A stretch of 64,000 nt of DNA from Acidimicrobiales bacterium (GTDB taxonomy: Bacteria > Actinomycetota > Acidimicrobiia > Acidimicrobiales > SZUA-35): NCBI GenBank assembly GCA_020629155.1, contig JAHDDW010000005.1, positions 1 through 64,000 on the forward strand, in the 5' to 3' direction. Each line of letters starts with the position of its first letter. Within the stretch, counting starts at the first letter, position 1. Position numbers and translations under genes: made by a program. This document shows positions 38,539-52,129 of the stretch, piece by piece. The notes under the pieces were generated by a model that worked only from the letters and a program-made list of their open reading frames with translations, was not told where the DNA came from and did not search any database.

Positions 38539-39147
38539 ATGTCTATCAAAATAAGGAAAGTATGTATAGCTGGAGCTTGTTTTTTGGCGGCTTGTAGTGG
38601 GTCGTCGCCTGAAACTCAAACAGAAACATCTCCCGAAACTGAAACAACAAAAACGACCGCGCAAGCTAGCGAAGCGCCAGTGTCGCTAACACAAACAACT
38701 AGCCAAGCAAGTTCAACAGCTGCATCTGCAACAGCTACAACAAATGCGGTGGCAGATGAAAGCACAACAGTGCCAGCACAACCTGCAGGCCAAACGATTT
38801 CGTTTGGTGATAAAGACGATGTGTGTCAAAGTGTTAAACTTACAAATGATGCGGCAGACACAGCCGCGCTTGCAACAGCATCAAAATGTTTCTTCGAAGC
38901 GTTCGAAGCGGGCAAGACAGTAACCGTTGACATCGCGCGCCCTACCGTTGAAGGTGACCCTATTTTTTATCGCTATTTCTATAACGGCGACAAAGTGCTT
39001 ACGGTTGCAGATACGAGGGCTGACCCTTTTGGCGACAACAGTGTCGTCGCGAAGCTTTGTGACAGCGTTACGTTAGACGGCGGTGAGCTTCTAGCAGAAA
39101 AATGCGAACCAGCCGATTCGCTTGGGTTCGCCGAGGCTTTACAATAG
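38539..39147 (+). CDS. Secreted lipoprotein of unknown function
   Basis: A 202-residue protein with a signal peptide ending at the lipobox FLAAC (Cys19). A long Thr/Glu/Ala/Ser-rich stalk runs to about residue 88. The compact C-terminal domain has paired cysteines (DDVCQSVKL, SKCFFEAFE, AKLCDSVTL, EKCEPAD) and the phrase PIFYRYFYNGDKVLTV. It is exported to the outer face of the membrane. The domain is not one I recognise. GGGAGG lies about 7 bases before the ATG. A palindromic repeat element follows the stop by about 20 bases and may end transcription. Confidence 0.7.
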   Translation: MSIKIRKVCIAGACFLAACSGSSPETQTETSPETETTKTTAQASEAPVSLTQTTSQASSTAASATATTNAVADESTTVPAQPAGQTISFGDKDDVCQSVKLTNDAADTAALATASKCFFEAFEAGKTVTVDIARPTVEGDPIFYRYFYNGDKVLTVADTRADPFGDNSVVAKLCDSVTLDGGELLAEKCEPADSLGFAEALQ

Positions 39148-40850: not shown

Positions 40851-40950
40851 TAGAACATCCTTCCATAAGAAAACGATTTCGGTATGCTCTGCAATAAAAT
40901 AAAAGACTATCTCTCATTTATTCGATTTGTATCGAATCGTTTTACTAGAG

Positions 40951-41026
40951 AACCGCTAAATCTGCGTGGAAACGCCCCGATCGGAGCGGAAATACCGAGG
41001 GCATTTACAATTTTTAGTGATGCCCT
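40951..41026 (+). ncRNA. Candidate structured RNA upstream of the secreted nuclease
   Basis: CCGCT (40953-40957) pairs with AGCGG (40985-40989) around an inner hairpin GCGT-ggaa-ACGC (40964-40975) and a CCGATCGG palindrome. A second stem, AGGGCAT/ATGCCCT (40998-41004 and 41020-41026), follows. Another short hairpin, TTCGAT/ATCGAA, lies at 40921-40936. This density of local pairing is unusual for the window. I cannot assign it to a known riboswitch class. The direction is assumed from the downstream gene. Confidence 0.35.
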
Positions 41027-41090
41027 TAACGCTACCAGCCTGCTTTAGCAGTTGTAATGTAGCTGCGAAAACGTAACGAGAATAAACGCT

Positions 41091-41141
41091 ATGAATCTGC
41101 TATTGTTGCTTCCAGGCGAACACATAAAGGCAGACTCATGA
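41091..41141 (+). CDS. Possible 16-residue leader peptide of the nuclease gene
   Basis: ATG 41091 begins a 16-codon frame, MNLLLLLPGEHIKADS, whose TGA overlaps the nuclease ATG as ATGA. Such an overlap often signals translational coupling. The peptide start also resembles RsmE rRNA methyltransferase N-termini, so it could be a chance or decayed remnant. There is no strong ribosome site before it. Weak evidence, kept because of the exact overlap. Confidence 0.3.
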   Translation: MNLLLLLPGEHIKADS

Positions 41142-41725
41142 AAAAACTATTCAAGCTTTTCTCGTACTCTTTTTTAGCTACGATGGTGATGTTTTCAGCA
41201 GTAGCTACAACAGCTCAAGCACAAACTTTGTCTGAAGTGTTGCTTGACGAAGATTCTCTGGAGGTGCGCAGAAATAGTGGGCCTCGAACAAAAGCATACG
41301 AAATTCAGGCAAATACAACCTATGTAAAATCTGGCTACACCTACAAGACAGACGAACTCGCTCGCCCCATTTCTGCCGAAGGTGTGCTTGTTCTCCAAAA
41401 AAGTAAACGCACGGCCGAGCAAACTAAAACTGGCAAACTCGGCAATCCTGGCGACGAAGGCGGGCACCTTATCGGCTCTCGATTCAACGGACCTTCTGAT
41501 GCGTTTAACTTGTTGCCGCAGACTCGTGCGTTGAACCGTGGCGCAGGTAGCGCCTGGACACAAATGGAAAGAGATTGGGGTAAAGCGCTAGAAGCAGGTA
41601 AAACCGTTGAAGTGCATGTGCAGCCAGTTTTTGACGAAGATAACGAGACGGTGCGACCCGACTCGTTTATTGTTGAATACACAATCGATGAGATACCGTT
41701 TGAAGAAACCTTTCCGAATGTATAG
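41138..41725 (+). CDS. Secreted DNA/RNA non-specific endonuclease (Endonuclease_NS_2-like)
   Basis: A 195-residue exported protein. The signal peptide (1-28) ends ATTAQAQ-type, with likely cleavage after AQA. The mature part has the His-Me finger nuclease core: DEGGHLIGSRFNGP with catalytic His110, followed by NLLPQTRALNRG, containing the metal-site Asn, and WTQMERDWGKAL. This matches the nuclease domain found at the C-terminus of LXG-type toxins such as YeeF. The length leaves no room for delivery domains. A small partner gene follows 11 bases later. It could serve nutrient scavenging or killing of neighbours. Confidence 0.78.
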   Translation: MKKLFKLFSYSFLATMVMFSAVATTAQAQTLSEVLLDEDSLEVRRNSGPRTKAYEIQANTTYVKSGYTYKTDELARPISAEGVLVLQKSKRTAEQTKTGKLGNPGDEGGHLIGSRFNGPSDAFNLLPQTRALNRGAGSAWTQMERDWGKALEAGKTVEVHVQPVFDEDNETVRPDSFIVEYTIDEIPFEETFPNV

Positions 41726-41736
41726 GAGTCGCAACG

Positions 41737-42120
41737 GTGGCCAGTAAGACAGATAGACAACTTGAACAGCTTGGTGAATTGCAAAATCAGATTGGTTCAT
41801 TAATGGTTGAGCTACTTGATGAGAACAGTGCACAGTGGGGGCAAGCCCGATTGCATATAGAACATCGCGGCCCTGATCATTATCGTTGGAGTTTGCTCTA
41901 TAAAAGCCAGGACGATACTATCGCAGGGGTTAAAACCAAGCAACGCTTCTCTGAAACTACAAAAAAATATATGCAAATAACAAGTGACATGGCAGGCGAG
42001 CAAGTGAAGCGTTTACGTTTCCACCTTGACACTTCTTTAAAGTTCAACGTCGAAATGTGGTATACCCCAACCGAAGGTTTACCAGGGTGGGATTGGGAAG
42101 AAGAAAGTACCTGTTCGTAA
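41737..42120 (+). CDS. Probable nuclease immunity protein (DUF600/YezG-like)
   Basis: A 127-residue cytoplasmic protein without signal peptide. It has a small alpha/beta character (GQARLHIEHRGPDHYRWSLLYK, MAGEQVKRLRFHL, LKFNVEMWYTPTEGLPGW) reminiscent of DUF600/YezG immunity proteins, which pair with nucleases of the type encoded just upstream. The identity is tentative: position and size carry most of the weight. The start is GTG 41737 with TAGGAG about 6 bases upstream, 11 bases after the nuclease stop. Confidence 0.5.
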   Translation: MASKTDRQLEQLGELQNQIGSLMVELLDENSAQWGQARLHIEHRGPDHYRWSLLYKSQDDTIAGVKTKQRFSETTKKYMQITSDMAGEQVKRLRFHLDTSLKFNVEMWYTPTEGLPGWDWEEESTCS

Positions 42121-42205: not shown

Positions 42206-43075
42206 GTGCCCACATCAGTTAAACAACTATCGATTCTTTCTCTCATAGTCACACTTATTGGATTGGCTTTTAGTTCCCCTGCGCAAGCACAAAGCCAGCC
42301 AGCGTCAAGTGCTCTGGCGTGTGCTGAAATGTCGGACTCAATCCACAGGTTGTATCTAGGTTTTTTCTTACGGGACCCCGAACCTGAAGCCCTTTTGTAT
42401 TGGAATGAAATGTACAGTAGCGGTGAAGCGAACCTTGCAGCGATAGCCGACTATATGAGCCAGTCCGAAGAGTTCTCTCTCCGCTACGGCCAGCTCGACG
42501 ATGAAGAATTTGTCACAAGAATGTACATAAACGTCCTGAAAAGAAAACCCGATGCAGAAGGGTTTAATCATTGGGTGCAGTCCTTGGCCAATGGCTATCC
42601 TCGCGGTTCTGTCATGGCAGCTTTTAGTGAGTCGCAAGAGTTTGTTTCGCGCACAAATACAGTAACACCATTAGCAGGTTATTTGCGTTGGTATCCCGAA
42701 GGGACACGCTGGTATTGCGGTCAAGGCAAACAGACTATAGACATTATGTTCGATAGCGAAGATGTGTATACAGACTATATTTTCACAAATAGAAGCGGGC
42801 AAGACACTGATCTGGCTGCCTACATTAGCGACGAGAGGCAGAACCAGCGAATCAATGTGGCGCAAGCAAAACTAGGGTCTAACTTCGCGCTTTATCGTTG
42901 GGATGGCACTTTCACAGGCAACCGTGACTACACAAACACATTGCAAGTTGAAGCTTCTCCAGAAACGGAATGGATCTTTGTTTTCTATAACGAATCGCTT
43001 GGCAAAACAAGAAGTGGTTGGCAAGTGGAAGAAACTGCTACCGTACCGTCTTTGAGTACTGCTGCTGATTCATAG
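42206..43075 (+). CDS. Secreted DUF4214-domain protein
   Basis: From GTG 42206 (AAAGG about 7 bases upstream) the product is about 289 residues. The signal peptide ends SSPAQAQS. Two DUF4214-like repeats follow: DSIHRLYLGFFLRDPEPEALLYWNEMYSSG and FVTRMYINVLKRKPDAEGFNHWVQSL, each ending with SEEF/SQEF. The C-terminal half is a beta-rich domain of unknown type. DUF4214 occurs in secreted and S-layer-like proteins. The frame is open back to TTG 42140, so the start is uncertain. The 3' end overlaps the convergent GGDEF/EAL gene by 38 bases. A second DUF4214 protein is at 50120. Confidence 0.7.
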   Translation: MPTSVKQLSILSLIVTLIGLAFSSPAQAQSQPASSALACAEMSDSIHRLYLGFFLRDPEPEALLYWNEMYSSGEANLAAIADYMSQSEEFSLRYGQLDDEEFVTRMYINVLKRKPDAEGFNHWVQSLANGYPRGSVMAAFSESQEFVSRTNTVTPLAGYLRWYPEGTRWYCGQGKQTIDIMFDSEDVYTDYIFTNRSGQDTDLAAYISDERQNQRINVAQAKLGSNFALYRWDGTFTGNRDYTNTLQVEASPETEWIFVFYNESLGKTRSGWQVEETATVPSLSTAADS

Positions 43076-50119: not shown

Positions 50120-52129
50120 TTACTTCGTGCCAGTTAGGTTTCTGAACTCTTTTGAGTTGCTGAAGTTTATCATCAGCTCGCTTCGTGGCATGCCGTTGTC
50201 TAACGCTGCGACCCACTTTTGATAGCCGATAGAAGTAGTGTCTTCTCTCATAAGAACATTTTCATACAGTGAGGCAACAAAGTCTGCATTGCTTACATTG
50301 ACGTGGTTAGGTTTATTCTCGTTGCTGTCTTCGAAATGTGCAGAAATGCGTTTCATGCTGTAGCCGTTTTTGTGGCGATTCTGCCAGTCAGCAAAACCTT
50401 GAGCGTCTGGATGGCGGTCAAAGTAGGCGCAGTAAAGCCTATAGATTTGAGCTGCGGTGTCATCGTCTAGCCCGTATTGTTTCGGAGCAGGAGCGGCGCA
50501 AGCATGCGTAGATCTCTCTTGTCGAGTTGTTGTGTCAGGTGTTTCAGGTGTCGCTGGTGTTGTTGCCGGGGTAGCTGTGGTCTGAGGTGGATCAGCAGGT
50601 ACGGTTGTGTTCACAGGCGGTGTTGGGTTGGTCGGCGGCAGCGCTGCTGCATCTTCTTTGCCTGTCGTCGTTTCGGTAACTGTGGTTTCGGTAACTGTGG
50701 TTTCGGTTTCTGGCATGGTGGTTGGTGTAGGTGTTTCAGGTGTGGCTGATGGCTGTGAGCCGAAACGCACAAGGCCTACATTTTCAGGATGGTTAGCTTT
50801 GGTCGGCCTAAACTGTCCGCCGCCCCACAGCTGGCCATACGAATCTTCATAAAGTGCCCAGGGGCCAGCATCGCCAGAGATGTTAAATTGGTTTGGTAGA
50901 AGTTCGTTTGTCGCTTTGTCGATTCCGTAGATGCCACGCACTTTTTGTTGCTCCACGGTCCCGAAATCGGCTATGTGTCGACGATATTCTTCGATTGGCT
51001 GTGAACCATCTTCTTTGTCTTGCTGATTGTATTGACCGCCTATTTCGTATGGGCCTACTGAATCCCAGCAGTGACAACCAGACCAAATGGTGTTTTGGCC
51101 GACGAAGATAACTTGTGTGTCGCCTCCACCGTTGTTTGTGTCGCCCAGTCCTCTATGGGTGGTGTATGCAGTTTCGGCTGTGAGCGTGGCAGCGTCCATC
51201 ACGACAGTCTGGTGGCCTTGGCCGCCGAGATAGACTTTTTCGCCAAAAAACTGTACGTCATGTTGCCACATTGACCAGCCTTGGCGGTGGTTCACAATGC
51301 CTAACGGCAACCCTTGTCTAACGTCTTGGCGAAGGTTTCCTTTTGTGTCTAGTGTTGCGAAATATGCTGCGTTGGTATCGCCGTTGATGCCGCCGAATTT
51401 GCCTGTGACATACACACGGTCTCTGGCAGAGTCAACAGCAATGCTGTAGACCAGTTCGCCAGCCGCTGAAGGTGTAACCTCATCAAACATTGTTTTGGGA
51501 GTCCATGTTGGGTCGACGGCACCTGTTTGAGCATCAAGACGTGCAAGTCGTCGCAGGCGTAGGTTGGCTGATTTGGTGAATGCGCCTCCTACATAAATTT
51601 GATTTCCAACAACTTCGACATCAAAAACGCCAGGGCGTTTGTTTTCTCGTGTGAGTGCAGGTTTAAAGGTGGCTTCTGTGGCGCCTGTAACAGGATCTAA
51701 CGCAGCAACACCGCCGTCAAATTCGCCGCCAGCTATAATTTTGCCATCTGATCGTACGTCAAGCGCATAGACTGGGCCATCAAGTTTAGGGAAAAATGTT
51801 TTATCCCACGCACCAGTTGTAAGATCGAAAGCTGCGAGGAACGCTGGGGCATCACCGTTTGCAGAAGCTAGCTCATTTCCGTCTGGATCGACGATGTTGA
51901 GGAATTTGCCGCCGACATACATTTTTCCGTTGTGTTCTTGAAGGTCATAGACGATTGCTTTAGATCTAACTTCATACACGCTCTCGGCTTTGCCAGAGAC
52001 ATTCCACGCTAAAGTGCTTGATTCAGGGGTTGCGTTTTTCGCGAATAATGGCGAGGTGAACAATCCAAACCCAGCGAGTAGGGTTAGAGAAACAGTAAGA
52101 GCCGCTAGATACTTCTTCGCCTTTGTCAT
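50120..52129 (-). CDS. Secreted beta-propeller protein with C-terminal DUF4214 domain
   Basis: About 669 residues from ATG 52129. The signal peptide ends near SPLFAKNA. Residues about 35-470 form propeller-like repeats of the delta-60/PQQ-like type (MYVGGKFLNI, IIAGGEFDGG, IYVGGAFTKS, VYVTGKFGG), often annotated as galactose-oxidase-like or hypothetical in Actinomycetota. A Thr/Pro linker with repeated TVTETTV units follows (about 475-565), then a DUF4214 domain (YRLYCAYFDRHPDAQGFADW). TACACT lies 7 bases before the ATG with TTGTTG 18 bases further up, so the mRNA is leaderless. It shares DUF4214 with the protein at 42206, which suggests a common surface-attachment role. Confidence 0.75.
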   Translation of the reverse strand: MTKAKKYLAALTVSLTLLAGFGLFTSPLFAKNATPESSTLAWNVSGKAESVYEVRSKAIVYDLQEHNGKMYVGGKFLNIVDPDGNELASANGDAPAFLAAFDLTTGAWDKTFFPKLDGPVYALDVRSDGKIIAGGEFDGGVAALDPVTGATEATFKPALTRENKRPGVFDVEVVGNQIYVGGAFTKSANLRLRRLARLDAQTGAVDPTWTPKTMFDEVTPSAAGELVYSIAVDSARDRVYVTGKFGGINGDTNAAYFATLDTKGNLRQDVRQGLPLGIVNHRQGWSMWQHDVQFFGEKVYLGGQGHQTVVMDAATLTAETAYTTHRGLGDTNNGGGDTQVIFVGQNTIWSGCHCWDSVGPYEIGGQYNQQDKEDGSQPIEEYRRHIADFGTVEQQKVRGIYGIDKATNELLPNQFNISGDAGPWALYEDSYGQLWGGGQFRPTKANHPENVGLVRFGSQPSATPETPTPTTMPETETTVTETTVTETTTGKEDAAALPPTNPTPPVNTTVPADPPQTTATPATTPATPETPDTTTRQERSTHACAAPAPKQYGLDDDTAAQIYRLYCAYFDRHPDAQGFADWQNRHKNGYSMKRISAHFEDSNENKPNHVNVSNADFVASLYENVLMREDTTSIGYQKWVAALDNGMPRSELMINFSNSKEFRNLTGTK

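What the first reader, a model, noticed from the sequence alone, without database searches (positions are those of the whole stretch)
41091..42120. Minimal secreted nuclease plus immunity pair with leader frame
A Sec-exported His-Me nuclease of the kind usually found as the toxin tip of LXG proteins is followed 11 bases later by a small cytoplasmic protein resembling DUF600/YezG immunity factors. The toxin has no delivery module, so it would be a free diffusible nuclease. A 16-codon frame overlaps the toxin ATG (ATGA), and compact RNA folds lie further upstream. The next gene encodes a secreted DUF4214 protein. The immunity assignment is by position and weak similarity.
Basis: partly seen in the sequence, partly recalled or inferred. 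Interest (0 to 1): 0.6.

Follow-up and report, generated by a model that had tools for sequence, protein, structure and literature searches.

The report
Secreted nuclease with its inhibitor gene
A bacterium carries a small two-gene unit: an enzyme that is exported and cuts DNA or RNA, and a protein that very probably keeps that enzyme from harming its own cell; both parts belong to known toxin and antidote families, but here the toxin has no delivery machinery attached.

Summary
Gene A (41138-41725) is a 195-residue protein: a Sec-type signal peptide plus one Endonuclea_NS_2 domain (E=1.6e-30) with its catalytic residues intact. Gene B (41737-42120) begins 11 bases later. It has no Pfam, NCBIfam or PADLOC match, but three lines tie it to the YezG/EsaG/DUF600 (Imm36) immunity superfamily. 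(1) Of 85 related nuclease genes, 81 have a small gene in that slot. (2) Profiles built from those neighbours, without gene B, rank it first of 496 window ORFs (E=1.9e-4; 8e-7 for the nearest subset), and 0 of 5000 shuffles reach its score. (3) Its predicted fold matches only EsaG and BH3703 well (Z 12.6 and 11.6; next 6.0). The rest of the reading is trimmed. The DUF4214 gene is a neighbour of ppx, found without the nuclease in relatives. The 'compact folds' are one copy of a repeat with about 40 genomic copies. The 16-codon frame is not above chance. The closest relatives are tips of CDI, LXG and WXG toxins; this one has only a signal peptide, in a genome without WXG100 proteins. It is an unusually minimal member of a known kind. 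Activity, binding and delivery are untested.

The parts
41138..41725 (+). Gene A: Sec-type signal peptide (about residues 1-29, AQA|QT) plus a PF13930 Endonuclea_NS_2 nuclease domain (residues 59-184); GH109-110, N124, N133 and E144 conserved
41737..42120 (+). Gene B: 127-residue protein, predicted cytoplasmic, divergent YezG/EsaG/DUF600-like (Imm36) inhibitor of gene A
41726..41736 (+). 11-base gap between genes A and B; AGGAG (41724-41728) just before the GTG start
40902..41030 (+). One copy of a ~125-nt dispersed intergenic repeat with terminal inverted repeats (MITE-like, about 40 copies); source of the 'compact RNA folds'; probably not part of the system
41091..41141 (+). 16-codon frame overlapping the nuclease ATG; not above chance; not considered a part
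42206..43075 (+). Secreted DUF4214 protein; neighbour of ppx in relatives that lack the pair; not part of the module

Best explanation
Genes A and B are a toxin-type nuclease and its cytoplasmic inhibitor. Gene A is a metal-dependent DNA/RNA endonuclease of the Tox-NucA/EsaD type that is exported through Sec as a mature domain of about 165 residues, with no delivery domain. Gene B stays in the cytoplasm and binds nuclease that is not yet exported, or that comes back from kin. [quoted passage not shown] The producer can thus make a free extracellular nuclease safely, as with barnase-barstar or Anabaena NucA-NuiA. Shown by sequence or prediction: nuclease family and catalytic residues, signal-peptide pattern, gene order, homology and fold of B, and presence of the pair in this genome alone among sampled kin. 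Inferred: binding, inhibition, export, and the target outside the cell (the rivals below that differ only in that target are sub-readings of this one).
For: PF13930 E=1.6e-30; nearest solved relative is the S. aureus EssD/EsaD toxin domain; catalytic-site columns conserved. 81 of 85 relatives have a 95-180 aa gene in the next slot. An HMM of these neighbours, made without gene B, ranks B first of 496 window ORFs (1.9e-4 against 0.43 for the next); nearest-subset HMM 8.3e-7 and 0 of 5000 shuffles as good. L114's partner, the best match of B (phmmer 5e-6 in 81 sequences), is itself a Pfam YezG-like protein at 2.7e-9. Model pLDDT 87.6; Foldseek's only significant matches are BH3703 (DUF600) and EsaG; VIA Z 12.6 for EsaG against 6.0 for the first unrelated row. 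In the tree the nuclease falls with Chloroflexota toxin tips that carry the same kind of partner (99/98). No WXG100 protein in the genome. EsaG mechanism: PMC9616950; YeeF/YezG DNase and immunity: PMC7033585.
Against: Gene B misses every curated Pfam, NCBIfam and PADLOC cut-off and is only 10-23% identical to relatives. It lacks the second of the two conserved tryptophans of the family (V90). The good model used an alignment of the suspected family; alone the protein gives a poor model (pLDDT 48), in which only the first helix and strands agree. No close relative of the pair exists in the 397 sampled genomes of the order, so the gene-order link of these very two genes cannot be replicated. No complex could be modelled and nothing has been assayed.
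Confidence: 0.78

Rival explanations
1. Free antibacterial weapon: the exported nuclease enters competing cells, for example by binding a surface receptor, and gene B is true kin immunity, as for a nuclease bacteriocin.
For: The nuclease groups with toxin tips, not with the other secreted nucleases of the phylum; a dedicated inhibitor is kept; the pair is rare and looks inserted, like toxin cassettes. Sec export of Tox-NucA toxins is listed by Zhang et al. 2012 (PMC3482391).
Against: No receptor-binding, translocation or pre-toxin domain in 195 residues, and no WXG100/T7SS marker; how the protein would cross a membrane is unknown.
Confidence: 0.3
2. Scavenging or biofilm DNase: the enzyme degrades extracellular DNA for nutrients or matrix turnover, and gene B only guards the producer's cytoplasm before export (NucA-NuiA-like).
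For: Signal peptide only; needs no entry into cells; NucA-NuiA is a precedent in which an exported nuclease has a small inhibitor (PMC4890671).
Against: Other secreted NS_2 nucleases of the phylum seem to do without an inhibitor (L017, L018, L024); the closest relatives are toxin tips.
Confidence: 0.45
3. Remnant cassette: a toxin tip and its immunity gene captured from a large polymorphic toxin, joined by chance to a signal peptide, with no present function.
For: No other copy of the nuclease family in the genome; present in this genome alone in the sampled order; another short immunity-like frame occurs elsewhere in the genome (C33).
Against: Both frames are intact, with conserved catalytic residues and good ribosome-binding sites; the signal peptide is complete.
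Confidence: 0.15
4. Gene B is not an inhibitor of A but an unrelated small protein.
For: No family hit at curated thresholds; low identity.
Against: Profile, shuffle and fold evidence all point to the same family that normally occupies this slot.
Confidence: 0.08

Closest known systems
EsaD/EsaG of Staphylococcus aureus (EssD; PDB 8gun, 8guo, 8gup)
   Same: Same nuclease family (phmmer 1e-12) and a partner with the EsaG fold (Z 12.6)
   Different: EsaD is a long T7SS substrate with helper proteins; here only a Sec-type signal peptide, and B is shorter (127 against about 160 residues)
YeeF/YezG of Bacillus subtilis
   Same: Metal-dependent DNase tip plus a downstream DUF600 inhibitor (PMC7033585)
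   Different: YeeF has an LXG export domain; ours is free-standing
Tox-NucA / Imm36 pairs of Zhang et al. 2012 (PMC3482391)
   Same: Toxin and immunity classes match; Sec/T2SS export and Actinobacteria are listed there
   Different: The minimal signal-peptide-plus-domain form is not found among the 80 nearest relatives where the N-terminus could be read
Signal-peptide or membrane-anchor NS_2 nuclease plus SUKH-like partner in two other genomes of the phylum (L032, L033)
   Same: Exported nuclease directly followed by a small immunity-type gene
   Different: Distant nuclease group and another immunity family; for L032 the partner has no Pfam match, SUKH by resemblance only; for L033 the matches are just under the curated cut-offs
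NucA-NuiA of Anabaena PCC 7120; barnase-barstar
   Same: Exported free nuclease with a small cytoplasmic inhibitor
   Different: Different nuclease branch or fold, and unrelated inhibitors (no NuiA match in Pfam)

Membership tests
Endonuclea_NS_2 (PF13930) / Tox-NucA nucleases | Domain match above the curated cut-off | tested here: met
   106.5 bits against 27
Endonuclea_NS_2 (PF13930) / Tox-NucA nucleases | Conserved GH, N, N, E (Zhang et al. 2012) | tested here: met
   G109-H110, N124, N133, E144 invariant in the six-sequence alignment
Endonuclea_NS_2 (PF13930) / Tox-NucA nucleases | Metal-dependent nuclease activity | not testable with these tools
   No assay
YezG-like / DUF600 (PF04634, Imm36) immunity proteins | Match to PF04634 at the curated cut-off | tested here: not met
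   No PF04634 match at E up to 1
YezG-like / DUF600 (PF04634, Imm36) immunity proteins | Sequence homology to the small genes that follow related nucleases | tested here: met
   HMM without gene B: E=1.9e-4 to 8.3e-7, first of 496 ORFs, 0 of 5000 shuffles
YezG-like / DUF600 (PF04634, Imm36) immunity proteins | BH3703/EsaG fold | tested here: met
   Foldseek 2.5e-6 and 1.1e-4, VIA Z 11.6 and 12.6; caveat: model made with the family alignment, single-sequence model poor
YezG-like / DUF600 (PF04634, Imm36) immunity proteins | Two conserved tryptophans (Zhang et al. 2012) | tested here: not met
   W34 kept, the second position is V90
YezG-like / DUF600 (PF04634, Imm36) immunity proteins | Directly downstream of an NS_2/NucA nuclease | tested here: met
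   11-base gap; 81 of 85 relatives alike
YezG-like / DUF600 (PF04634, Imm36) immunity proteins | Binds and inhibits the cognate nuclease | not testable with these tools
   Needs a binding or rescue assay
LXG/WXG (type VII) polymorphic toxins | LXG or WXG export domain, and a WXG100 protein in the genome | tested here: not met
   No such domain in gene A; no PF06013 match in the genome
Sec-exported proteins | Signal peptide with n, h and c regions and an AXA cleavage site | tested here: met
   KKLFK, hydrophobic core (mean 2.12), AQA|Q; by rule, no dedicated predictor on hand

The most novel reading that the evidence does not exclude
A stand-alone, diffusible nuclease bacteriocin in a bacterium without a type VII marker: the tip of a polymorphic toxin, stripped of all delivery parts and re-addressed through Sec, enters competitors by a route not yet known, with an EsaG-type immunity protein.
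Probability: 0.2. Interest if true: 0.6.

Novelty: new member of a known kind. Interest (0 to 1): 0.36.

Why it matters
It extends the EsaD/EsaG (Tox-NucA/Imm36) kind to a minimal Sec-only form in an order where the nuclease family is otherwise rare (5 of 397 genomes), with an inhibitor that standard annotation misses. It offers a small, self-contained pair for testing whether a toxin tip needs a delivery module, and whether EsaG-like inhibition works in a 127-residue protein that lacks the second family tryptophan.

Tried and rejected
Curated libraries for gene B (Pfam, NCBIfam, PADLOC): nothing. Direct searches for relatives of B in 61 kin and 396 phylum genomes, viral contigs and plasmids: only itself and chance hits (L011 is a stop-containing chance match). 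Nuclease in viral contigs: none. PDB by sequence for B: chance matches only. Rfam over the locus: none. Leader peptide: rejected as not above chance. Palindrome TTCGAT-N4-ATCGAA as an operator: rejected, 22 genomic matches against 20 for the control pattern, and the site lies inside the dispersed repeat. DUF4214 as third component: rejected, since orthologues lie beside or near ppx in relatives without the nuclease and the genome has 31 DUF4214 matches. Promoter and terminator scans were no better than shuffles.

Full report
What is there. Gene A (41138-41725, 195 aa) and gene B (41737-42120, 127 aa, GTG start) lie head to tail with 11 bases between them, each with a good ribosome-binding stretch. 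Gene A begins with a textbook signal peptide (KKLFK, hydrophobic core, AQA|QT) and is otherwise one Endonuclea_NS_2 domain (PF13930, E=1.6e-30). It is the only copy of that family in the 3.17-Mb genome. Its DEGGHLI motif and the residues N124, N133 and E144 are conserved. Its nearest solved relative is the toxin domain of S. aureus EssD/EsaD.

Where gene A comes from. Plasmid and genome searches bring up toxin tips: FHA/CdiA-type and VENN proteins of Proteobacteria, LXG proteins of Bacilli, and a WXG100 protein of Chloroflexota. In a maximum-likelihood tree gene A falls in a supported group (99/98) with three Chloroflexota toxin tips and three loci from its own order, far from the other secreted nucleases of its phylum. 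Its branch is long, so the exact place is unsure. In its order only 5 of 397 sampled genomes have the family, and only this one has a recognisable partner gene among the loci inspected (L208 and L209 were not inspected).

Gene B. It has no curated match, and no relative could be found by direct search. I therefore tested it through gene order. Of 85 relatives of gene A outside this genome, 81 have a 95-180 aa gene in the slot right after the nuclease. A profile built from these 81 proteins, without gene B, ranks gene B first among all 496 window ORFs of 50 or more residues (E=1.9e-4, next 0.43). The profile of the 13 nearest gives 8.3e-7, and none of 5000 shuffled copies of gene B reaches its score against the full profile (17.3 bits against a best of 11.2). 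HH-align agrees (3.4e-5). The best single match, the partner of L114, is itself a Pfam YezG-like protein (2.7e-9), which ties the chain to PF04634. The subset of 13 was chosen by eye as the non-enterobacterial short forms after a first look at the alignments, so the full-profile value is the fairer one.

Fold. AlphaFold2 with the 41-sequence alignment gives pLDDT 87.6. Foldseek finds six matches at E up to 0.001, all of them BH3703 (DUF600) or EsaG. VIA-align gives Z 12.6 for EsaG and 11.6 for BH3703 over 118 residues, with the first unrelated chain at 6.0. Two limits apply: the alignment consists of the suspected family, and gene B alone gives a poor model (pLDDT 48), in which only the N-terminal helix and first strands agree.

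What does not belong. (a) The stretch 40902-41030, which folds well as RNA (z -2.58 for the 286-base upstream region), is one copy of a repeat with about 40 copies in this genome. The consensus of 23 copies has terminal inverted repeats that agree at 17 of 19 positions, so it looks like a MITE-type element. (b) The 16-codon frame turns up in 10% of shuffles and its like in 7 of 52 window genes. (c) The DUF4214 gene has orthologues near ppx in three genomes of the family; in G007 the two genes are direct neighbours (about 250 bases apart) without any nuclease pair. The pair thus looks like an insertion between ppx and the DUF4214 gene, although in other relatives different genes lie there, so the ancestral order is not settled.

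How it most likely works. EsaG slips between the two halves of the EsaD nuclease sheet and disorders the metal finger (PMC9616950), and YezG neutralises the YeeF DNase, binding it with a nanomolar dissociation constant (PMC7033585). By homology gene B should do the same to gene A in the cytoplasm. Gene A then acts outside. The genome has no WXG100 protein and gene A has no delivery domain, so export by Sec is the only visible route. Whether the enzyme scavenges extracellular DNA, reshapes matrix or attacks neighbours cannot be told from sequence. The origin from toxin tips and the retained inhibitor lean towards conflict; the lack of any entry device leans towards a plain extracellular nuclease.

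Compared with what is known. Zhang et al. 2012 already list Tox-NucA with Imm36 (DUF600), with Sec/T2SS export and with Actinobacteria (PMC3482391). Free secreted nucleases with a small inhibitor are known from NucA-NuiA and barnase-barstar (general knowledge). Two other genomes of the phylum have an exported NS_2 nuclease followed by a SUKH-like gene (L032, L033). What is unusual here is the bare form: among the 80 nearest relatives whose N-termini could be read, none is signal peptide plus domain alone (many N-termini run off the fetched DNA and several starts are unclear). I rate it a new member of a known kind, with an inhibitor too diverged for present databases. By strict membership gene B fails two tests for PF04634/Imm36 (curated cut-off, second tryptophan), so I call it a divergent relative that very probably works like that family.

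Noticed in passing
window 40902-41030; copies at L177-L205 and others: A ~125-nt dispersed intergenic repeat with imperfect terminal inverted repeats (AAGGCTATCTCTATTTATT / its near-complement), about 40 copies in this 3.2-Mb genome at 72-91% identity; looks like a MITE family..
   Followed up: partly
L175:2203-2454 (own genome contig C33, about 32.2-32.5 kb): A second, short YezG-like frame (PF04634, 22.5 bits, just over the cut-off) overlapping the end of a 449-codon ORF with no Pfam match; may be an orphan or broken immunity gene..
   Followed up: partly
own genome, 31 places; window 42206-43075 and about 50135-50482: DUF4214 domains are strongly multiplied in this genome (31 matches). The protein in the window also has a conserved C-terminal part (RWYPxGxxWYC ... 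GWQ) shared with orthologues near ppx in related genera..
   Followed up: partly
L032, L033 (two other genomes of the phylum): Exported (signal peptide or membrane anchor) NS_2 nucleases directly followed by SUKH-like genes: a parallel Sec-nuclease plus immunity arrangement with another antidote family..
   Followed up: partly
window 38539-39147: Serine/threonine-rich putative lipoprotein (202 aa) with a DUF4362 match (E=7e-9) downstream of ppx..
   Followed up: no
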